From assembly GCF_000006565.2 (NCBI RefSeq), contig NC_031478.1, positions 2,339,874 to 2,403,873 of the forward strand: a DNA stretch of 64,000 nt, given 5' to 3'. This document shows, in pieces, positions 7,571-63,559 of this stretch (positions within the stretch are counted from its first letter, which is position 1; every line of letters begins with the position of its first letter). The position numbers and the translations under genes are program-made. Below the pieces are notes generated by a model. It saw only the letters and a program-made list of their open reading frames with translations, was not told the DNA's origin and searched no databases. Origin of the DNA: Toxoplasma gondii ME49. Its lineage: Eukaryota; Apicomplexa; Conoidasida; Eucoccidiorida; Sarcocystidae.

Positions 7571-10500
7571 CTCAGCGTCATCTCCAGAGTCGCCTGAGGG
7601 CCCGTCTTCTCTCTCCAAAAGATCGGCTCTGAACGCGTTCAAGCCCCCAATCTTCGAAGCATTTCTTCGCGCCAAAGTCGCCGAAAACCCTAGACCTCCT
7701 TTGGGTTTGCAAAGTTTTCCTTCCTCTCTTGCTTCGCTATATGCCCGACTACCTTCGAGAGTCCAAAGTCGCTGTTCACCGGTCTCGGCGCCACTCGCGA
7801 CCCGACCTTTCTTCCAATGTCGAGACCGCTGCGCATCTCCGCCATCCAGCCTCCGGTCCTTCCCGTCCGGGTCCTCAGCGACAACTCCGGACTCTTTTTT
7901 AGAGCCCGCGAGGTCTCTATTCGCCGTCGAAGCCGGTGGCCTTGGTCGTACAGGAGTTGCAGCCTTCGCTGTCTTCGAAGCAGTCTCGTGGGGGGATGAG
8001 GCAGAAGGGAAACGCGGCACACCGGTGTAGCGATATGTGTGTGTGTCGACTCTGTCTCCGTTGCTGGCAGGCGACGCCGATTCCTCACTGCTGGACTCCA
8101 AGCTCGACTCCGAAGGTCGAGCTAAACACTCTCTGGACGCGCCCTCCAATCGTCTTAGATAGGACAGGCACCTCTGGAGGGCCTGGAAAGCACACGCAAA
8201 CCAGGAAAAATGGAAAATCAAGTCAGGATGAGGAAAACCAGGGACGCTGCAAGACCCAGAAAAAGTCATGAGTGCGAAAAGCAGAAACAGAGAGCATATG
8301 AAGGCGAAAGATGCACACAGAGAGAATCGAGCACAAAGAGAGAGGAGGGCGAAGAAGACGAAAGAGAATAAGGCACGAGAGGGAGGAAGAGAAAGAAGAA
8401 AACGAGGCACAAACTAGGCAAGAGAAGAGGAACTCTACCAATAGAAGGCACAGGCAGGAAGACGAAACTGTGAAGATTTGAGCGACTGTCGCAGCAGTTG
8501 AACAGAGGGAAAGGGATTGTCGATACACAGGGCCTAAGAGGCCCACTCTTGAACTCTCCTAAAGTGAACGCCTTCACATTTCGGCGTTGCCGCGTGCAGC
8601 AGGCGACTGTCAACGCACTTTGGAAGCGAACCGGATTCGACGCAGCCCACACACAAGCCTAAATCCTAAACCCCGACCCCTGAACCCTTTCTACGATCAC
8701 TCAAAGCAGAGAACCGCAAAGTTTACCTGGGCGTCTGACTGGCTGCGCCCAAGCCCCACGGCTTTTGGCCCTGGGAAAGATGAGCCGAGGCGACTCGCGA
8801 GGGAAGTCTCGCTTCCGGCCTTTACCCACAGACCTTCTCCTTTCTTGTTTCCGTTGTCACGGGCTCTGAGCTTTCTCTGCTGTCCCTCGGAGACACTCAA
8901 GGCGGGGAGCTCTCGGGCTACGAGGGCGACAGACGGCGAATTCTTTCGAAGACAGGATGCGTGAGGCACAGAGTTTCGGAGATCGCGTTTCAGGTGCGGC
9001 GTCGCCTCCACTCCTGCGAAGGAAGAAGCAGAGGCCGAGAGAGGAGTGAAGAACTCTGACAAGCCCCCTGCGCTGCTTCTGCGACTCTCTCGCTCGCCTC
9101 CGTCGGCCTCGCTGTCTTGCAGAACGAGTTCCCTGAACCCGATGCCAAAGTCGGGCGCGAGGCGAGTCGCGGCTCTGTCCTGACTACTGAGTGTCTCCTT
9201 CTCATCTGTGGCTTTTGGCGGTTCTCCTTCGTTCTCCTCGCCGCGACTTTGAGCGAGTTCCTCTCCCGCAACTCCCCCCCTGTGAGGTCGTTCGGGGGGT
9301 CTCTGCACCTTGTTTTCCGCGCTTCTTCTGCTCAGCTTCCCCGCTGTCACCTTCCCTCGCAGCACAAGAGAGGCCTCCTGAGAGGACAGCTGACATGGCG
9401 CCGGCGTCTCCTTCCACCAGGTGGAGCTCGCGCTCGAGGGAAAGACCTGAGGGTGTTCCGCCGCATGCGGAGGGTCTGGAAAAAGCCCACACGCGCGACC
9501 GTGACGCATGCGCGTCTGCAAAAACGCCTCCACCTTCCGTTCACTCTCTGTCCATTCTTCTTGGGACGGGGGGGGCGGCTTGGCCTCGGCTGGCATCGCA
9601 TGCGCCGGGGCACCGCTGCTCTTGAGTCCGAGAGATTTCTTCTCTCCATTCGCGAAGAACGCGTCCTGAGCGAAAGATTTCTTGAGAGCACAACGCTCAG
9701 ACGCAGCAGTCTCGCCTGACGCGTTCCCCAGTTCTCTTCCCTCTGATTTCTCTCGTGTCTCCTCTATCCTGGGACGTGTGCGACACCCCGTCGCTCTCTT
9801 CTCGAGCGGTGCAGAGGACCTTCCGCCGATGCATGCAGTCTCCAACCTGTCTGCACCCTCGTCCGCCAGCCACAGAGCCGCCCCTGTGAACTCTGTTGTC
9901 TCTCTCGTGGCCGCCGATCGCTCCCTTTGCTCTTTTCCCTTCCTCTTTTCGCCCTGAAGATCCGCGGGGTCTCGAGGGGGCAAGGCGGCATGTGTCTCGG
10001 CGCGTTTCGCAGTTTCTGCGTCGACGAAGAGCTGAATGGAGTCCAGCAGATCAAGCAGAAGTCTACCGTCTTCTTTCTTTTTCGATCGTTCTCGACGTCT
10101 GTTCTTCCTGTCCGCATGTCTCCGAGCTGGAGAGGCGCCCGACGCCCCCCGTGACCGCGCCCCGTCCTCGGACCCGGAAGCCCCGATATCGCGGGAGATG
10201 TCAGGCTCCACGTCCCGAGGTCCTCTTCTCTCTTCGCGGAGGCTCTTCCTGTCGCTCTTTTCTGGAGAAGACACGAAGGAGCCCTGACAATTCGCAGAGC
10301 TGCTCGAATATCCGCCCGGGCACGGCGGCATCAGAAACCCTCTCTTGCGTTCGAGAGAGGAAGCTAAGGGGGACCGACGACCTCTCGATCTGCCGGTCCA
10401 CGCTGTTTTTTCCGAACTTCGACTCCACAAACTCTCCTCAAACTCCTGGGGGGGGCTTGAGGCCCGAGTGTGAGAAGAACGCGAAGTACCCGACTCCGTC

Positions 10501-13500
10501 GTCCGCTCTTCGCTGCCTCCGTTCTTCGGTGAAGCCCCGCGTTTCTCCGGCCCTTCTCTCGACTTCCAGACGACCCGAGAGTTTGCAGCTCGCGACTGTC
10601 TCTGTCCTTTCTCGTTCCTGCATTCCTCCGTCAAATGGCCTGTGCTGAGTTGTCTCGAGGGCGCTCGACGCCCGGTGTTTCCGAGGCTATGTTTTTCTTT
10701 CCCGTCCTTCCACGAAGAATCCTCAGCTGTCTCTACAGCAGTCAAGGGAACCTTGGCTGTCGCGCCACCTCCGCCCTCCGCTTCCCCACGCGCAACCTTG
10801 TCCACGTCGACGAGATCCTTCGACCTAATTGCGGCCTTCTTTCTCTTCTCGTCCCTGTCCTTCCTTCTCAACGCTTCCTCAAAAAGATGGCTGTGTCGAA
10901 ACAAGTCTCCCCTCAGCGCGCCTTCGCCTGTGGCTCCCTGCAGAGAAAAACCGTCGACAACGTCCCCCGGGGGTAGAGGGAGACGGACAAGCGGTTCCGG
11001 AAGGACCGCTTGCACAGGGACTCGAGAGCTTGCTCGGCTCCACAATGGACTTTTCAAGTGAGAATCTGCGCTCTGTTCAACGCTCTCTTCGTCTCTCAGC
11101 TTCGACGCACTACGTGTCTTCGCAGGCTTCGTCCAGGTGTCTGCACACCTCGAGGACTTGTTCGCTGCCCTCGAGTGTCTCTCCTCTTTACTCTCGAGCG
11201 AAATCGGCACCCCGGGTCCACCTGTCGCCATGGCGCTACGACGGCGGCGTGGCTCCCGGCCCTCGATCGCGCTGCTGCTGTCCCGTCGCTCGCGGTGTAA
11301 GTACACTTCATCTTTGTTCTGCCCGTAGGATCTTTCGCGTCTGAAGGACTTGTCGCGGGAGGTTCTTCCTCGCGGCTCTTCTGGGCGGAAATCAAAGTCG
11401 TTGTTGGTGACAACCGGTTTCCTCTCTCTCGCCGCAGCACTCGCGTCCTTCCCTTCGCCGTTCTTCCTCTCTTCCCGTTTCCGTTGTCTCTCCACCCCAC
11501 AGGGACTGCTTGGCTTGATGTGCGTGCTCTTCCTGTCGGGGTTTCGTTTCTCCGGCCGGTTGTGAGCGAGTCCGTTGGAGGCCGGCATAGGAAAAAAGTC
11601 CTTCTTCTCGCGTCTGGAGACCCCGCGACGCCTGTCGGCTCTCTCTTCTTTCGAGTTTCCTCTCCGCTCTCCTTCCGACCTCTTGCTTTCTCGCCCGCGC
11701 ACTTGTGCAGCCACCTCGCTCGTCGACTTCTGCCTCTCCTCGGCGTCTGATTTTGGCCGGTCGTTCTCGCTCGGAATGTCCGACCGCAACGCTTCGTGAC
11801 TGAGAAGCAGCAGGAGCGGCAGAAGTTCGGCGAGCAAGGCCCGGTCTGGTCCGCGAGCCTTTCCCTTTTTTTGCTGCGCTGCGCGAGTCTTGTCCGCTTC
11901 TTCCTGCGTGTCGTGGCCTTCTGTGGCCTCTCCAGTCGAGAGATTCGTCCCCGACGCTTCTCTCTGCTTCAGCCGCTCCACGAGCACCTCCAGCAGCTGC
12001 CTGTACACCTGACACATGGCCTTTCGCGCGTCGCGTGGAGCCTCGGCGAGCGCCAGCAACGACGAAGAGACGCCGCCGCTGCGCTCCTTCGCGGATTTCT
12101 CCTTTTCTTCCCGTTTGTGCCGTTTTTCTGCAGCCTGCTGACTCCTCTCAAGCTTTTTAACGCCTGCCTCATCGAAAGAAGCCTGCCACGAGGCGGGGTT
12201 TTTCTTCTTCCCCGACTTTGAAGGCTGCGCCCACGATGACACGTCCAAGGCTGAGAGCGTCAGGGGCCGTTCGCCATCGAAGAACTTCTCCCAGCTGTTT
12301 ATTTCCTCTCTCGAAAGTCCCTTGGTCTCCCCGTTCGCATTTCGCGCTCCTTCGCTCTGCTCTTTCTGCCCCGTCCGTTCGTCTTCTTTTTTGACCTCGC
12401 GCGTCGTCGCTCGATGGTGAACAGAGAAGCCTTCCGCCGACCCATCCGCCAGCGCATATGCCCCGCGATTGCAAGAACAGAGTTCCCCTCTTTCCTTGCT
12501 GCCCTTTGTTTCCGTTCTCTCCCCACACGCCGTCCACAGCAGCGGCAGGACGTCGCTCGGCGTCGACTGGAGCAGCGGCCGCGAAGAGGCTGTCGGTCGC
12601 CCCGCTTTCCTGCGTTCTGATCTTTTCTCCGGAGGAAAAGGAGACACTTCCTGTCCGCTGTATTCTGCCTTTTTCTGTCCTGGCAGCGCAGACGATGAGA
12701 GGCCGCCCTTCTTCTCTCGCGCCTTGCCGCGAAAGTCCCCGTCGCCTCCACAGGTGTCTGTACACGGGGGAAGAAGGTGTTGGAGAAGGCCAGAGAGGCG
12801 AGCAGAGCCGGGAGCGTGGAGAGATGAAAGCAGCGAGAGCGCCAAGGGTGGAAGCGAAGAAAGGAGGCTCGAACACCGCGTTTCCGTGGAGTCCACAGAA
12901 GACAACAGATGCGCAGTGAGATCAGCCACACGCTCCGCCGCAGCTCGTTCTTTCACCGACTCAACACAGTCTGCTCCTGAGGCTGGAGGAAGAGTGTCTT
13001 CGACCAAACCCAGCACGGCAGACGAAGAGGAAGAGAGAGAACAGACAGACGAATCGAGCGGACGGAAACTCAGCTGCGAACTGGGACCGAGAGTCGAATT
13101 CGAAGAAGGGTTCGAAACCAGCAGTCTTTGCTTGGCAAGCCCCGAGCAACTTTTGCAGATCGTCGACGTCTTTATCGCTCCTCGCGTGTCTCTCCTCTCT
13201 CTCCCAGAACCGCCAGAGGATATGTTCAGGGCGTTTCTCGCTCCTCGCGCGTCCAGGATCTCTTTGCTGCCCACCTCGCCTCCTCCTGACCCCCCAGATC
13301 TTCGCCCTTGAGGAAACTGCTTCCCTTTCGACCCTTCTCCTTCCTCGTCCTTTCCACGCAAATGATTCACGACGCAGAATTTTGAAGAGAAGAGCCCCAG
13401 ACGGGGACCTCGAGGCGGCGGCGACGCCGGTCGTGGACTCGGCGCGAGTGGAGAGACAGCCGGCAGAGGACGAGGCTGCGGGGTGGAAGAAACGGCGGCA

Positions 13501-54133: not shown

Positions 54134-57100
54134 TTAAAAAGGCTTGTACGGATTTTTTTGGGACCAGATGTCCCGCGTGACCCGACACGCTTTCTGACTG
54201 GCTTCGTCCTCGGCTGCCTGAAAGATTTCCGGGTGAATCTCTCCCAGTTTCTCTGCCACCCGCCGGCTAAAGGGATAAGTACCCTCGATGTTTCCTCCTG
54301 AAACACGGTAAAGGAAAGGAGAGAAAGAATCGTGGTAGAAGACACCCCGAAAACGCCGCTGTCTGCCTCGGCACAGCCTCGCGAGTTCCTCTCGGCCTTC
54401 CCCGCACTCACCTTCGGCGTAGTTGCAGACCGTCAGAACTTTCTGGCCAGCCTTGTCCCCCAATTTGCACGGCTGACGACAATGGCGAACCGCGCATGCA
54501 CCGAAAAGAGACCGGTCACTCATCAGCTGCGTGAAATGCCCAACCATGATGCCTTCCGCGTGACTCTCAGGATTGCACTTCGACAGCGGCTGCGCCACAC
54601 ACGGATTTCCCGTTCTTCCGTATCTGAAAATCACAGTCAAGGCGCACTTAAAGACAAGCAGATAGACCCATAGATATATCTGAAGAGATGAGAGACGCGG
54701 CCAGAGGCCCGAGGAACTCGAGAGGAGAAAAGCTGGCTTGACCTCCCGCCGTCTCCGCGTGCACAGTGACGTCGAGAGTTGCTGTGATGAGGACGCCGCC
54801 TGCGACTCGAACAAAAAGCTCGCGAAGTATATCCCTAGCTGCCACAGAAGGAGTCAATGAAACAGATCGGTCGGCACACAAAGCAAACGGAAGTTCGAAA
54901 AAAGAACACGCAAAAAAAGGGAGTAGGCGACTGGCAGTTCTCACCCTAAACTGAGGCATGGAGGGTACCGCGACGGACCTAGCGAAAAGGCTGCGTTTGC
55001 TGCAAAGTCTTCCCTTTCTTTGTGGACCCTTCAAAAGACAACCGCCACTCCCGCATTTCGCCTGCATCTCCTTGCCACATAAAAGGCCGTTTTAATGTTC
55101 GTCAGACACGTATTTTGCCTCCAAGCTGCGAAATGTTTTGTGGTCTGTTTCTCCTCACTTGTAGCAGTGAACTTCATCGAACCAGCCGGCGGGGACATCT
55201 GCCCACGAGGTCGATCCCAGCGTGCACGAAATGGAAAGGTTTTCGCCCGTGGTGTTGAACTCTGGAGCGTTCATCTGCAGAGACAAGATCCAAAGGGAGC
55301 AAAAACCGAAGGGCTCCAGAGAAAAAGCTAGAAACGCTTCTAAGATACCCATAGCGAAGTGGAGAAAAACACTGAAACAAATTGCCACCGAAGATATAGG
55401 ACCCTTGGAAAGAAAAAAAGACCCTCTAGTCGAGAAAAACGCACCATGTATCTTTAGAGGGCAACAGAACAACAAAGCAAGAAGACTCGCCACAAGGTCG
55501 ACTCCGTTCGACATCTTTGAACACTCGAAAGTTACATTCGAAGCAGCTGCTTGCAAAGGGCAAAAATAGTATCTGCCGAGTGAGAGATAAACCGCGGCTA
55601 CATGAGGCCGACAGGAAACATCTCCCCTCTCTTCTCACTAAATTTACAACACGCAGTTTAGCTACCAGACCTTGAGAGGCGTGTGTGTAAGGATATGGGT
55701 GTGAATCTGCATTCGAAAGTACACTTGATCTTTCGCCTGCATCCGTTAAAAAAACCAGGAGTTCTCCATGTGTGTCGGGGACTTCCGCGAGTCCAGAGAA
55801 CGCCTGTCTGCGTCTTTCTCTGAAGAGTTGTAACGGGCAAAGGCGTCTATATATACACATATATACATGGATGCACAGCGAAAAAAAAATTTGTGTTCGA
55901 TTTTAACCGTAGGAACTCCCACAAATTATAGTGAAATCCCCCTTCCCATTTTCAAAGTGTAGCGGCCATCAATTTTATAACTACTTCCACTGATCCCGGT
56001 ACACTCTTTGTACGCGATTTTCCGGAGAACATGCCTTTTGACAGGGGTACGTCGGAACTGAATGCGTCTGAAGCTTACATAGGCAACTCGCGTCTCTCGA
56101 TCAGAATGCCTTATCGAACAACCTTCTTCTTCTAGGCGCCACGCCCAGTACTCGGCGAATTTCTTCAGAGACATGTTGAACTCCAGCGGACGGACACCGT
56201 ACCGGCGACGAAACGCGTTGTGCTTCTCTAAAAGGACTGAACAGTTTTCCAGAAGAAGAAGCAGAGAACAAGAGGCGCATGCTGGGCCGAGGCAGAGAGA
56301 AACGAGCTGATGACGGTAAGATAAAAACATATAACAATTGACCCATCCATCTCCGAAACACGTGAATGTATGGAATTCGCCTTTTTGACACAGTCCTGTT
56401 GAGAACAAGTTTCACTCAAGTGAGGATACGAATTCCCCAGAGAAGCACGAGCAAGAAGCAAACCACGGAGAGAAAACTTCCTTCTTCTCAGAATAAGTAT
56501 CCTCGTCTGTCAGATTTCTGTAGACCTTTGAGTCCAGACAAAACTCCTGTATGCCTATCTCGGATCCCTTCAGGAGTCGCCTTACTTGAATCAACCGCCG
56601 CCTCGTCGACTGCAAGAAACCGAACAAACGCGAGAGAAAAATACGTGCTTTGCAGAGATTTCTTTCTTCCTCATCTCTCTGTAAGTACACTACACCCACA
56701 ATCTCAGTAGGCACTGGCACTGAGGGGTGTGTTCACTAAAAACGTTTCTTTCCACTTCCGTCGTAAGCCGATTTTTATCCACACCGGAAACAGTCAGTCT
56801 TTGTCCTTCGCTTCCCGGTCTCTATCAAGGACTGCTGTCTTTGTCTTGACTTCCAGATGAGCAAGAAACCTCTGCCTGGTGCTCATCAACGCGCTTTTTT
56901 CGACAAAACTCGGAAAAGGCTCGGCCTCCTCGATCATGGCTCAGAGGATGTTCACGTTCAGACGCCGACGGTGTAAGGCTCGAACGGAATGCCTGACCAT
57001 GTGTGCTGTTATGTTGATCAAACACGCTTCGTCAATAAAAATACTTCACTGACATGTTGACACAAGAATGAAACACTACAGAAAAACTTCTACGGAACTG

Positions 57101-60100
57101 TTTGAATCAAGCCATGACAAATAATGCCATTCACAAAGACAATCGAAGTAAATACCTGTGATGCTCAGGTGTCCAGGAACTCGTGGGTACAGCTTGGATA
57201 GCCACCGGTGATGCATCCCCAGCACAGTGTGATTATATGGACATGGGCATCCCGAGAGAAAAAGCTTATACTGATGTTGAACAAGTTCTACGTCTACACG
57301 GTCACCATCTCAACCTGCGCTGCTCACAAACTCCAGCCTAGATCCGGTATACGAAGATGCAGAAAATCTCCATCGGGAGTCCACCTCGTACGCGCAAGAC
57401 ATTCCAGACGAGCACATACACAAACGCCCCAAATCGCGTCTCTTTTTCGCCGTTCTGCTTTCTCCTTACTGGGCGGAATAATGTCGTCGTCAGTCAAGCC
57501 GAGAAGAGAGACACACTCGAATTTGCCCGGGGCCGTCTGTCGCAACTCTCGCAGAAAGTACGCGCGCACAGCTGCGCCGGGTGTTTGATCGCCTAGAATT
57601 TCTCCGCCTTCGCGTCGAAAGCGTCTCGTGTGGCGGGTCGCAAAAATCGAACACCTCCCCGCCTCACTTTCCACTGCAAGCACAAACAGGCGTTCTCGTT
57701 CGCAACTCCTGTGAGTCGCTGAATTGCAGGACAGGGCGCCGGACGCTCCACCGACAAGAGAGACGGAAAGGCGCATTGTTCTCGACTGTTCAACTGTTTG
57801 ACGCGCCGAGGTCGCTGGACGAGACAAAGAATCCGACACTGCAAGCAAGACTCGAGCGGAAGAGTTCCTCTCACAAGATACCGACCGGAGAAGCGGCCTC
57901 AAGAACTCTACGAAAAGACACAGTCTTCGGCAACAAAGGTTGTTCTTGGATCCTGAATTCCGCGTGCGATTTCGGCTCACGCGTCGTGAATATTCAATGG
58001 TTCTATCAAAGGAAAACCGTTTCATTCTTTCCGAACTAAGCAGACACCCCAAAACGCGTCGTCTTTGCATTGGGAAGAACAATGTTCCACCACTATTTTA
58101 TTGAGTCCAAAGTACCTTGATACAGTGCCAGCAATAGATGAGAAGACACTCTTTCACCGTCGACTCCAAGAGCGAAAGAAACTGGTCCGTCGACACACGG
58201 TAAGTTTCTTTCATTGCCCACACGAGGACTCAGTGCGAAAAGACGAAGAAAAGAGAGGGAACCCCCACTAATATTTTGCAAGAGAAAAACACAGGAGATG
58301 CAAACGTGGCGCCTTTGGAAAAGAAGAAAAACTCGGGAAGGAGCTGCAAGGCGCTTTCCAGGAAAATTGCAAATTTCCGTTCGCGAACTTTCACGCCATC
58401 CGCTTTCAATCGGAAATTACTTTCGTCACTCGCCACATGAGGCAGTTCAGATGAATCTACCAAACATTTCCAGCTGTCACAAAAAGCAAGTCTACGAAAC
58501 AACACGGGAAGTGCGTCTTCGTCAAAAGGATTAGCTGCGACGCTTTCTACTCAACATTTGGACCCGATGCATAGTGCTTTGAACGGTAGTCCCAGAGTGG
58601 AATGAAAAAACTTGCATTTTGTTGATGAATTGTATCAAAGACGCGAAAACGTGTACTGTTCCGAGAGAGAAAGAGAGCTCGGGTGTGCAAGAAAAACCGA
58701 CAGCTCAAACCTCGCCACGAAGTCTCTCTGCAGTTGAAACAGGCGACGTATAAACAACGAGTGACCTGCAGCTCCACGACTACGTCTGACAAGCGAGAAA
58801 CACACCTCCACCCTTCCTTCGAGGGAAAACGACAAAGAACAGTCACCTTCTATCCACCGAAACCAGCAGAGCTGAGAGAAAGGCAACGGACAAAAGAGGT
58901 TGTGCCACACCAAAGACACCAAACGTTTCAGAGATGTAGCCCAGGACGAGACTACTGGCGCATCTGTCATCTGCGCAGCAACTTCAAGACCAACGCTGGA
59001 GGAAAAAGGCGTCGACGGACCGCTCGCCCACGTCGTCTCGTCGGGGAGCAAAGCGCCGAGTTCGTCGAAAATCGCCTGAGGCATGTAGTCTGGGCGCGTC
59101 ACCCGAAGAACCTTCCATTTGCTCGCCAGATCTACGAAGAAAACAGACAAAGATCCGTCTCCCTTGCCGTTGCGAAAGAACGTTAGACCGAGAAAGACTC
59201 CTTTGACGTCCTGGGAGGAGAAACATCCTGCTCAGAAGAGATTCCCGCCACACATCTCGTCTCTTTTCTAAACAAGGACGGAGTTAGAGAGTCAAGACCT
59301 TTCTGCTCAGCAAGTAACTTTAGGACGACAACTCTGGACGAGCTGGGACTCTTCAAAAGCATCTCTCTTCCACCGACCTCGGCATCCGGAAATGGCTTCG
59401 CAGTGAGAAAGAACAGAGACCGTTCCGCAGTTAAAACCATCGGGCTGAACGTGGAAAAACAAAGTCGTGCCAACCCCACACTGCGTCGAACAGACTGTCG
59501 GCGTCGAGACGATGTGCGGGCAACTTGCTGAAAAGAAAAAAAGGCAGAAACGAACGAAGGTGGCCAGACGTTCACAGATGGAACGAATACGTGTGACAGA
59601 GGTTAAAACAAGGAATGAGAAGCGAGGTGATTTTCGAAAGTGGACAAACTGTGACGAGACTTTTAAAACAAGAGGCAATGTGACACGCGTTACAAAAACG
59701 GAGTGAACACGAGGAAAGCGACAGAAACGAAGTGAAGACGTTTCATCTCCCAGAATGAAACTCCGAGTTCTTCTATCGGCACAGGTCCTGGTGCTGAGAA
59801 ACTTCCAGTGTGCAGTTAGAGAGACACATGCGAAGACATGTGTACGCGACGAGGCAGCGAGTAGGCTTTCGGACATCAAGACACTCAAGAAAGTATGCTT
59901 GACAGTTCTACTTCATGAACTCTCTGCAGGCATGGAGGTACGGGACTCTATCTGCAGCCAGTCATCTCCACCTCTCTCCCTATCTATCTCAATGTATATA
60001 CGGATGCTAGAAAGCATCGATGCGCACAATCATATTCATCTCTGTCTATCCGAATCTGCTCGAGACCAGCTGAGGTGCACAGACACACACAAACACACAG

Positions 60101-62417
60101 ACATCTGCGAATACCTCTACTTACATATATTCATACATGTATGACCTATCTATCTCTGAATCTGCCTATCTCTCCATCTTCCAATCTATCTCTTTAGCTT
60201 AGATCCAACGGAGAGGCAGGTGTGAGACAGAGAACCACAGTTTCGGACATACGTAAGTGCGTTTTGCTGAAGGTGGAGGGTTTGAGTTGATGGCCCAGGG
60301 AAGCGAAATCGGGGGTGGACTGTAAAACGCGTTCTTTGAAGAACTGGAAAAGTTCATTTTCTTGAGGAGCAAGGGAAATCACTCTCGGCGTCTCTGGATA
60401 CACCGCAACGCGTCCTCCAGTTCGAGGCGCTGGAGCAATGGGCGCCGGCCGCCCGGCCATCAGGTGAGAGAGAGGATTCGATTTCCTCCGAATCGCCTCC
60501 TCGTCTGAAGGACAGGAAAAGCCACCGAGGGCAGAGGAAAGGCAAACAAAAATACTTGGTTGTCGTCCTTCACAGTGAAGACAAGACACCTTTCCACGTC
60601 TCTTTACCCTCACTTCGAAAAGAGCGAAAAGCGTCGACAATTAAATGAGCCACCACCCGTTTTCTGTGTATAGCTTTCACCATCCCATATTCTAAATTTT
60701 AGTACTCTTGACACGTCCAACGCGCAAAAAAGAACCAAAAATTCAGTTGGGATCTCTCACCTCCTGGACAAGGAATGTACGCGCCAGTTGAAACGAACTC
60801 GTTGACGAACGCGGAAGTCTCTTTCTGTCTTTGCCGACCGGTGTAGAAGAACGTTCGCAGCGCCAGACCGCATTCTGTATCTGAGAGAATTCGTTTCTTG
60901 AAATGGCGTCTCGACGGCGCCGTCTCAAAGGTGAAGTACACCGAACCATCCGCGAGGACCTCTGCAGTGCAAGCGTTCGAAAAAATCGAGAAACGGACAC
61001 AGTTTCCCTGCAACATTCGTGGAAGCGCTCAGACGCGCTGTGAGGAGAAGATGCTTCTCACTGTTGCTGCGAATGAAGACAGCGTTCCTCATTTTACTTT
61101 TTCCTCCAAAAAATTTCCTGCTTTGCATGCACGCCTCGTCTAAATTCGTTTTCGCGCCCTTCTCCAAAGTCAGGTCGACCGAAAAGAGTATCGGCGTGCA
61201 GCGAGTTAGAGCTCCAATCTCAGAGAAATGTAAACTTGACAGAGAACTGGAGCTTTACGATCCGATAAAGGTGGACGAATGAGAGAGGATATCCCCAGTT
61301 CAAATCTCAGATCACTGAACATGATGAGAGACGATGTTCGTAACTCGAATCTCAAGTGACTATGGACAGATCAGGAAGGACACGATTTGAAAAACAACGC
61401 CTCGAATCCGCAAAATCTCACGGTGTCCCTGTTTATTTGGTCTGATGTATATATAGATTTTCGAGTCGCGCAAGGTCTTTGCGCAAAAACGAAATCTGCT
61501 TTACATGAAAGTATTCGAGTGGATCTGGTAGCGCATTAGAGCGTCGAGCAACAAAGCGAAGGCACACACACTGGCAACTTCCCTTTTTCTGCGCGAGAGA
61601 AACTCAGGCTGTTCCCTTCTCACGCTATGCCACCGAAGAAAGCATCTCCGAAAACCCGCAACGTTTCTAGTTGCCTTTTTCGAAAACCAACGAAAAGCTG
61701 TTGTTTCTGATTATGAAAAATCTTCACGTAACGTCTTCAGACGAGTCCAGAAAGTCGACGGCGCACCTGACTCCCATGTAGATTCATCGGGAAGTTTTTC
61801 ACCAAGTTCGAGGAAAATGGGTTCAGGCACATCCGGCGGCTTCGCCACTCCCAAAGCACTCCATTTCTCTTGTGGGGCTGCATGCGCACAGAGTGGAAGT
61901 CGCAGCGACAACGCAACCCTCGAAATCAGTACGACACAAGGAACTCAAGAACCGTAGGCGCATGCATTTCCACGTCTCGTTTAAAAAGGATTACATACAC
62001 AAATCTATCTCCATGCATAAAAAACATGTATATTTATACATGTATACGAATATATATATATATATATGTGTATAAACGGAGATAGAAACCTAATTGTGTA
62101 TGTTGAAGAAGCGAGAAGAGTACATGCAGATGAGCGTTTTTGCAAGCGTTTAACTAATCACTCTTTTCACGAGAGGTCCAGACACCGGGGAAGCGTCTTT
62201 TCGCCTTCAAACCTCTACCACGGGAGAAAAGCCAGACGACATTCGATCGAGCAGACTTGAGGTGCAAGCATGTAAGTGTACGGTTCTCACGCATGCATTC
62301 GCTTCGGCAAGCTGACTACGAAGGGAAACCAAACACTGTCTCTATCTGTCTCTATTCTCCACACACTTTATCACAATTACACAGACATGTCTAAGTATAC
62401 ATGCACTCTACACATGA

Positions 62418-62448
<31 letters not shown>

Positions 62449-63559
62449 CATGTCTATGTAGATAGATCAACAGGTAACATATACGTATATACACGCAGAA
62501 GTGACTTGCACATATATGACGAAAAGAAAAAACTGTGTCAGACTGGAGAGAGACCGGGACGCCAGAGGAGACAGGCTCAGGTGCTGACAGTGTGGTTCCC
62601 CGGTTTGTCGCTGGGCGTTGTAGCCTGAAACATCGTAGAAAAATTGCTTGGAATGTTCAGAAAACATTCTGAGTCGATCGAAGAAATTTTCTCAAACGTT
62701 TCCTAAAAAACTGGAAGATGCCTGAAAACGGTCGAAGAAGTCTCTCAAAAAGGTCTTTTTCGAAGAAGTCTCTCAAAAAGGTCTTTTTGTTTGTTTTTTC
62801 CAGAGAACCTGATCTCACATCTCACACTCACTGGGGCAGCCTGAGACGCCCACACAGCCGCGCGAAGAGAAGAAAGTGGAACAGCTGTCTCCTCGTCGCT
62901 CTTGCGCAACTTGGAACCGGTGACCCTTCCCACAACTCGCTGAGCAACGACTCCAAGTCGATGTGAATTCCGGACATCCGTCTGAGGACGAAACAGAAGA
63001 GAACATGGAGAGGGAATCGGGGAGAGAGAATCGGGGAGAGAGAATCGGGGAGAGAGAATCGGAGAGACCACAAACATTCGTGTCTGTCTACGTATGCGTC
63101 TCTAATGATTGACCCATCTACCTGGCTGTAGGTATGTTTCTCTCGGTCTACCTCCCTCTCTCTATAACTGTCAATGCACATCTATCTAGCAACACCGTTC
63201 ACACACTACCTTTTTCTGGGGAGTAATGTACTACGAGTTGGACTCCTGGTTTAGATCTTGAAGGTGTCTGCTTTTCTGTATCCACGCATCATTTTATATA
63301 TGGTGACGTCTGTTTCTCGAAGAGCTCTGCATCTCTCTCTCATTCTTTCTCCATGTTGCCTATGTCTCGCTGTGGTGGACGTTGGAAAAATGGAGACGAA
63401 CGCGACACAAAGTCTGTCCTTTCCTTTCTTCTGCCTTACAATCCCATTCTTTGCCTTCGAGGAGAGAAACCGAGTCTGCAACGATCGCGAATTCTGAGTT
63501 CTGCACTGCCCACTTCGCCACAAGACGCGCCAGAGCCGGTTCAAGTGCACTCGCGTTTT
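54134..63559 (-). CDS. modular TSP1-like repeat protein with C-terminal CAP/SCP domain (5' partial)
   Basis: A likely secreted or surface adhesin-type protein; the N-terminus lies beyond the right edge. Thirteen exons are all phase-consistent: 63559-63440, 62981-62832, 61877-61767, 61027-60761, 60504-60253, 59527-59378, 59131-59021, 57673-57470, 56609-56526, 56236-56079, 55274-55159, 54623-54412, 54297-54134 (TAA); at least 699 aa. Exon 62981-62832 codes a TSP1 domain (CPEFTSTWSRCSASCGKG, then C...C...C); 59527-59378 codes a second, divergent one (VCSTQCGVG) lacking the Trp. The last four exons code a full CAP domain: EKHNAFRRRYGVRPLEFN, HSDR, TGENLS, WFDEVHCY, VGHFTQ, VCNYAEGGGNIEGTYPF. The two His and two Glu of the CAP cavity are present. 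The other exons hold two unknown repeated modules. Extra class 1-1 exons may be missed, especially at 57.7-59.0 and 61.9-62.8 kb. Confidence 0.8.
62049..62068. repeat. (TA)n microsatellite in TSP1-CAP gene intron
   Basis: A TA run in the intron between the first TSP1 exon and the 37-residue module exon. Confidence 0.8.
62427..62449. repeat. (TA)n microsatellite in TSP1-CAP gene intron
   Basis: A second TA run in the same intron, preceded by ACATACATA. Confidence 0.8.
62733..62788. repeat. perfect 28-bp tandem duplication
   Basis: Two identical 28-bp copies (62733-62760 and 62761-62788) beginning cgaagaagtctctcaaaaag. They lie in the intron just downstream of the first TSP1 exon's donor. Confidence 0.9.
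63019..63060. repeat. three perfect 14-bp tandem repeats
   Basis: The unit ggggagagagaatc occurs three times with a partial fourth. On the coding (minus) strand it is a pyrimidine tract about 40 nt upstream of the acceptor of the first TSP1 exon, so it may serve as its polypyrimidine region. Confidence 0.9.

What the first reader, a model, noticed from the sequence alone, without database searches (positions are those of the whole stretch)
54134..63559. A TSP1-repeat protein that ends in a complete CAP/SCP domain
Seen: thirteen minus-strand exons that join with matching phase, coding TSP1-like Cys patterns and then a full CAP domain including GENL-, GHFTQ- and CNY...GN-type motifs. Known: TSP1 domains mark apicomplexan adhesins such as the MIC2/TRAP type, and CAP domains occur in secreted cysteine-rich proteins. 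Inference: the combination in one polypeptide suggests a secreted invasion or egress factor with adhesive and lipid/sterol- or Ca-binding CAP functions. I do not recall a described protein with this architecture.
Basis: partly seen in the sequence, partly recalled or inferred. Interest (0 to 1): 0.75.

Follow-up and report, generated by a model that had tools for sequence, protein, structure and literature searches.

The report
Toxoplasma TSP1-like repeat plus CAP protein
This is a real 16-exon Toxoplasma gene for a protein, probably secreted, that ends in a CAP (SCP) domain and carries two copies of a block containing thrombospondin-like repeats; databases already name it an SCP protein, but the repeat half is not part of that name and no test of its function was found.

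Summary
The 13 minus-strand exons at 63559..54134 join without a stop; with three exons upstream of the window they form a 16-exon, 820-codon gene. An annotated T. gondii protein, 'SCP family extracellular subfamily protein', agrees at 812 of 820 residues without a gap. CAP is complete (PF00188, 51.4 bits, whole profile) and its H/E/E/H residues align with solved CAP proteins. TSP1 is right but weaker: repeat 1 misses Pfam's cut-off (19.5 of 21.6 bits), yet profile comparison and shuffles support it; repeat 2 is degenerate and rests mainly on duplication. New: an exon triplet is duplicated (150/111/201 and 150/111/204 bases, phase 1). It matched nothing else in this genome, and three capped protein searches found orthologues only in Toxoplasma, Besnoitia and Neospora. 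Hydropathy shows no membrane anchor and Pfam no VWA, so it is not a MIC2/TRAP-type adhesin. An invasion or egress role is untested. Verdict: real, already catalogued gene with an apparently undescribed architecture; moderate interest.

The parts
63440..63559 (-). Exon D, residues 164-203: lead-in to cassette 1
   Evidence: Exon model, residues; helix 169-183 in a low-confidence model
62832..62981 (-). Exon E, residues 204-253: first TSP1-like domain, six Cys, WSRC, O-fucosylation sequon CSASCGKG
   Evidence: Pfam TSP1_CCN 22.6 of 27 and TSP_1 19.5 of 21.6 bits; hhalign 95.1% with shuffles; first Foldseek row is CCN3 TSP1, E 0.37
61767..61877 (-). Exon F, residues 254-290: cassette 1, KW..LGV..P.IFLELG..LP.E..W segment
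   Evidence: duplicated in exon J, 0 of 2000 shuffles reach the score
60761..60961 (-). Exon G, residues 291-357: cassette 1, RRHFK..ILSDTECGLALR segment
   Evidence: weaker duplicate of K, 11 of 2000 shuffles reach the score
60253..60504 (-). Exon H, residues 358-441: Pro-rich linker, then predicted helix, before cassette 2
   Evidence: helices 404-420 and 422-430
59378..59527 (-). Exon I, residues 442-491: second, degenerate TSP1-like domain (six Cys, no Trp)
   Evidence: Homologous to exon E, 0 of 2000 shuffles; hhalign to T. gondii TSP1s 54.5% only; window piece has no Pfam match, Neospora counterpart TSP1_CCN 15.1 of 27 bits
59021..59131 (-). Exon J, residues 492-528: duplicate of exon F, same length
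57470..57673 (-). Exon K, residues 529-596: duplicate of exon G, one codon longer
56586..56609 (-). Exon L, residues 597-604: 24-base linker exon
   Evidence: 7 of 8 residues identical in Besnoitia
56079..56236 (-). Exon M, residues 605-657: CAP domain, first part, with H648
   Evidence: Pfam CAP 26.9 bits in this exon's frame
55159..55274 (-). Exon N, residues 658-695: CAP domain, GENL and WFDEV
54412..54623 (-). Exon O, residues 696-766: CAP domain, GHFTQ and CNY
54134..54297 (-). Exon P, residue 767 to the stop: end of CAP domain and C-terminal tail, not hydrophobic

Best explanation
One T. gondii gene encodes a probably soluble, secreted, disulphide-rich protein: signal-peptide-like start, low-complexity stretch, two tandem cassettes [TSP1-like domain, segment F/J, segment G/K], each preceded by a predicted helix, then a C-terminal CAP domain. 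Shown: gene structure, cassette duplication, complete CAP domain with its four aligned H/E residues, TSP1-like domain 1 (below Pfam's cut-off). Inferred: it enters the ER, TSP1 domain 1 is O-fucosylated by POFUT2, and the protein is released as a soluble ligand whose TSP1-like cassettes dock on a partner protein or glycan while the CAP domain binds metal, lipid or protein. A role as a partner in parasite surface or secretory complexes fits better than a MIC2-like motor-linked adhesin, because no anchor was found.
For: Model agrees with the annotated protein. CAP: 51.4 bits over the whole profile; aligned to pseudecin E 3.2e-5 and GLIPR1 E 0.0012 with H648, E668, E691 and H725 on their H/E/E/H counterparts (positions). 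CAP is among the best conserved parts: 159 of 216 residues identical in Besnoitia, level with exon J (26 of 35), against 30 of 50 and 26 of 49 for the TSP1-like domains. TSP1: hhalign 95.1% for the exon E pair; 0 of 200 free and 0 of 200 Cys-fixed shuffles reach its score. The 20 PDB sequences matched by the 5-sequence repeat profile at E up to 1 (best 0.0003, two under 0.001) are by name all molecules known to carry TSP1 (the last point is recalled). O-fucose motif fits CX2-3S/TCX2G (passages of PMC6939170). The six most hydrophobic 19-residue windows lie in residues 1-30; no other exceeds 1.25.
Against: No expression, localisation or binding data were found for this gene. TSP1 domain 1 misses every Pfam cut-off, domain 2 of T. 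gondii has no Pfam match, and the genome-wide PF00090 search did not list the gene. Cys-fixed shuffles alone reach up to 79.6% in hhalign for the exon E pair, so the percentages are inflated by cysteine spacing. Structure models are poor (mean pLDDT 38.7 and 35.3) and leave the CAP region without a confident model. In Neospora as annotated, exon E and the second half of CAP are missing and only 46 of 86 aligned CAP residues are identical, perhaps an annotation fault, which could not be checked. No dedicated signal-peptide, membrane or GPI predictor was run.
Confidence: 0.5

Rival explanations
1. An oocyst, sporozoite or sexual-stage secreted protein with no role in tachyzoite invasion; CAP acts in wall or extracellular matrix chemistry.
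For: T. gondii SCP-named genes are on oocyst or sporozoite lists: TGME49_278120 in PMC9207213 and (as 078120) PMC3616887, and TGME49_020280 in PMC3616887 (passages).
Against: No call tied either ID to this gene; that they lie elsewhere is recalled gene numbering only. If 278120 were this gene, this rival would gain directly.
Confidence: 0.25
2. A lipid or sterol exporter of the yeast Pry1 kind: CAP binds a sterol or fatty acid, and the TSP1-like cassettes only position it.
For: Complete and well conserved CAP domain. Sterol binding by Pry1 is recalled knowledge.
Against: No lipid-binding motif or cavity was tested. In Eimeria SAG19, a CAP-fold coccidian protein, the lipid pocket is absent (passage of PMC7979774).
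Confidence: 0.15
3. The helix plus TSP1-like hairpin is a cystatin-like fold, so the cassettes are protease-inhibitor-like rather than adhesive.
Confidence: 0.07
4. Two separate genes read as one.
For: A 1347-base intron between exons J and K.
Against: Annotated proteins of three genera run from cassette 2 into CAP, and my separately made model agrees.
Confidence: 0.03

Closest known systems
CAP superfamily (CRISP, antigen 5, PR-1), PF00188; pseudecin and GLIPR1 the nearest solved sequences found
   Same: Complete domain, GENL, GHFTQ and CNY..GN cores, aligned H/E/E/H
   Different: Preceded by two TSP1-like cassettes
Eimeria SAG family (EtSAG19), CAP fold
   Same: CAP-fold proteins of coccidia
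   Different: Eimeria SAGs are membrane-anchored, over 80 in E. tenella, with almost no sequence similarity to other CAPs (abstract and passages of PMC7979774); here one cassette gene, no anchor seen, and a CAP that Pfam recognises
CCN3 TSP1 domain (6rk1)
   Same: Best match of the cassette profile among solved chains (E 0.0047) and first Foldseek row (E 0.37)
   Different: CCN proteins carry other domains and no CAP (recalled)
MIC2/TRAP adhesins
   Same: TSP1 domains with O-fucose motif, same parasite group
   Different: No VWA and no membrane anchor found here
Other T. gondii SCP-named genes (TGME49_278120, TGME49_020280)
   Same: Same kind of annotation name
   Different: Probably other loci (recalled numbering, not established by a call); the cassette matched nowhere else in this genome

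Membership tests
CAP superfamily | PF00188 match over the whole profile above the curated cut-off | tested here: met
   51.4 bits against 21.1, profile 1-117 of 117
CAP superfamily | Conserved H/E/E/H residues | tested here: met
   H648, E668, E691, H725 align with pseudecin (positions); that these are the CAP tetrad is recalled
CAP superfamily | Strict CAP1 and CAP2 signature patterns | tested here: inconclusive
   Cores GHFTQ and CNY..GN are present; the strict patterns were only recalled, and the Trp recalled for CAP1 is Ser here
TSP1 domain (PF00090) | Score above Pfam's cut-off | tested here: not met
   19.5 of 21.6 bits for exon E; no match for exon I; not listed in the genome-wide search
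TSP1 domain (PF00090) | Profile similarity to bona fide TSP1s beyond chance | tested here: met
   Exon E pair: 95.1%, 0 of 200 free and 0 of 200 Cys-fixed shuffles. Exon I set alone is weaker: 54.5%, 0 of 200 and 1 of 200
TSP1 domain (PF00090) | Six Cys and Trp ladder | tested here: inconclusive
   Six Cys in 5 of 5 repeat sequences aligned; one Trp in domain 1, none in domain 2
MIC2/TRAP family | VWA domain | tested here: not met
   Not among Pfam matches at E up to 10, whose filters drop most matches above 0.1
MIC2/TRAP family | Transmembrane anchor near the C-terminus | tested here: not met
   Hydropathy only: the six best windows lie in residues 1-30, all others at or below 1.25
Cystatin fold | Structure match | tested here: inconclusive

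The most novel reading that the evidence does not exclude
A soluble TSP1-CAP ligand restricted to Toxoplasma, Besnoitia and Neospora, in which a duplicated TSP1-containing cassette of otherwise unknown fold carries a CAP domain to a surface or complex: a CAP domain recruited into the apicomplexan adhesive secretory repertoire.
Probability: 0.25. Interest if true: 0.6.

Novelty: new variant of a known kind. Interest (0 to 1): 0.36.

Why it matters
It shows that the database name 'SCP family' describes only about the last quarter of this protein. Much of the rest is a duplicated cassette with a TSP1-like domain and segments that match no Pfam family. If secreted, it is a candidate with which the role of CAP proteins in cyst-forming coccidia can be tested by gene removal.

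Tried and rejected
The automatic exon chain took wrong frames or odd tiny exons in places; replaced by the hand-checked model. NCBIfam, a library for prokaryotes, gave 0 matches for 2 of 2 proteins. Rfam gave 0 matches at its gathering scores in the window. The weak CAP-query match on contig C5 (E 0.43) lies in what reads as repeated sequence and was dropped. The other PF00188 match in the genome (2 matches from 7 scored candidates) is on C14 (ORFs); whether it is TGME49_278120 was not established. The cassette-only protein search returned Neospora and, at E 0.054, a weevil spondin-1, a TSP1 protein. D against the helix part of H (not all of exon H) is not similar by shuffle test (1709 of 2000 reach the score), so duplication is claimed for three exons only. 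Foldseek gave 141 matches at E up to 10 and none at E up to 0.001. Fold matches outside residues 149-256 and 401-485 are hardly tested.

Literature: 10 searches of open-access PMC full texts. Passages only were seen in PMC9207213, PMC7979774 (with its abstract), PMC4501334, PMC3616887, PMC4340605, PMC13125899, PMC8993856, PMC2575384, PMC9815656 and PMC6939170; other papers only as search listings. No TSP1 plus CAP protein appeared in what I saw; the TSP_1 combinations listed for T. gondii in the part of a table of PMC2575384 that I saw are with VWA, PAN, Notch and Sushi. A 2007 survey of apicomplexan adhesion domains (recalled) was not looked up.

Full report
Origin. The window lies at C12:2339874-2403873 of a 65,284,747-base genome. 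The protein that agrees at 812 of 820 residues is named as from Toxoplasma gondii FOU, so the species is T. gondii. Strain and chromosome were named by no call; from recall of the contig length it would be ME49 chromosome X. The gene ID was not learned.

Gene model. I joined exons by hand from the sequence and splice sites before any search for homologous proteins; a Pfam scan of single frames and a PF00188 search of the genome had come earlier. The result has 16 exons, 15 GT-AG introns, 820 codons and one stop. Three lie upstream, the first coding a hydrophobic N-terminus. The 11 junctions from B/C to L/M are all phase 1, as expected of shuffled or duplicated extracellular exons (inference). 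The annotated FOU protein has the same length, with 8 substitutions and no gap. Besnoitia besnoiti (1054 aa, 62% identity over 99% of the query) and Neospora caninum (647 aa, 58% over 74%) have orthologues. The Neospora entry as annotated lacks exon E and stops within CAP.

CAP. Pfam CAP matches residues 607-764 over its whole profile, 51.4 bits against a cut-off of 21.1. By sequence the nearest solved chains are pseudecin (E 3.2e-5) and GLIPR1 (E 0.0012). In the pseudecin alignment the H of HSDR (648), the E of GENL (668), the E of WFDEV (691) and the H of GHFTQ (725) meet their counterparts (positions). In Besnoitia 159 of 216 CAP residues are identical, level with exon J (26 of 35) and above the TSP1-like exons (30 of 50, 26 of 49); in Neospora, whose CAP end is missing, 46 of 86.

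TSP1. Exon E misses Pfam's cut-offs: TSP_1 19.5 of 21.6, TSP1_CCN 22.6 of 27, and the genome-wide PF00090 search at E up to 1 did not list it among 36 matches. Other evidence is favourable. Against 13 TSP1 domains of the same genome (13 of the 29 matches; alignment), the T. gondii and Besnoitia pair scores 95.1% in hhalign; no shuffle of 200, nor of 200 with the cysteines held in place, reaches its score, although Cys-fixed shuffles get up to 79.6%. A profile of both repeats (5 sequences, three genera) matched 20 PDB sequences at E up to 1, best 0.0003, named as circumsporozoite protein, thrombospondin, F-spondin, CCN3, sporozoite surface protein 2, TRAP, properdin and vasculostatin, all TSP1 carriers by recall. 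Foldseek's first row for the whole model is the CCN3 TSP1 domain, at E 0.37 and probability 0.93. Exon I is less sure: no Pfam match in T. gondii, though its Neospora counterpart reaches 15.1 of 27 bits for TSP1_CCN; 54.5% in hhalign, with 1 of 200 Cys-fixed shuffles above it. It is kept as TSP1-like because it is homologous to exon E (0 of 2000 shuffles), has the same length and the same six cysteines.

Duplication. Exons E/I are 150 and 150 bases, F/J 111 and 111, G/K 201 and 204. Shuffle tests give 0, 0 and 11 of 2000; exon D against the helix part of H gives 1709 of 2000 and is not claimed. The two-cassette query has no other match in this genome at E up to 10 (8 of 8 matches are exons of this gene). 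Three protein searches found orthologues only in Toxoplasma, Besnoitia and Neospora; the only other row was a spondin-1 at E 0.054. Each search scored only about 8000 candidates of limited length, so absence elsewhere is not proven. Segments F/J and G/K match no Pfam family.

Function. Shown: the sequence features. Inferred: secretion, soluble state (the six most hydrophobic windows are N-terminal and no other exceeds 1.25; no dedicated predictor was run), O-fucosylation at S219 in CSASCGKG (consensus and the POFUT2 role in T. gondii from passages of PMC6939170). SCP-named T. gondii genes appear on oocyst lists: TGME49_278120 has values 531 and 326 in sporulating oocysts and 0 to 3 in the other listed stages (passage of PMC9207213); 078120 and 020280, in the older numbering, are in the oocyst/sporozoite protein list of PMC3616887 (passages). 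No call tied any of these IDs to this gene or excluded it; that they lie elsewhere is recalled. An oocyst or sexual-stage role is thus a serious rival.

Verdict. Real gene, correct coordinates for the part inside the window, complete CAP, TSP1-like rather than Pfam-grade TSP1, new detail of a duplicated cassette. The protein is already catalogued as an SCP family protein; the combined architecture was not seen in the 10 searches made. New variant of a known kind, moderate interest.

Noticed in passing
window 23025-33237, + strand: RNA polymerase Rpb1 domains 1, 3, 4, 5 and 6 in successive open frames: a gene for the largest subunit of an RNA polymerase, Rpb1-type.
   Followed up: no
window 8700-17804, - strand: A single open frame of 3035 codons without any Pfam match at E up to 0.001.
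   Followed up: no
L020 4034-5070 (C14): A second T. gondii CAP locus with a start that looks like a signal peptide; the cassette query had no match there.
   Followed up: partly
P0003, Neospora caninum 647 aa: The annotated Neospora orthologue lacks the first TSP1-like exon and ends in what looks like read-through of an intron within CAP, perhaps an annotation fault.
   Followed up: no
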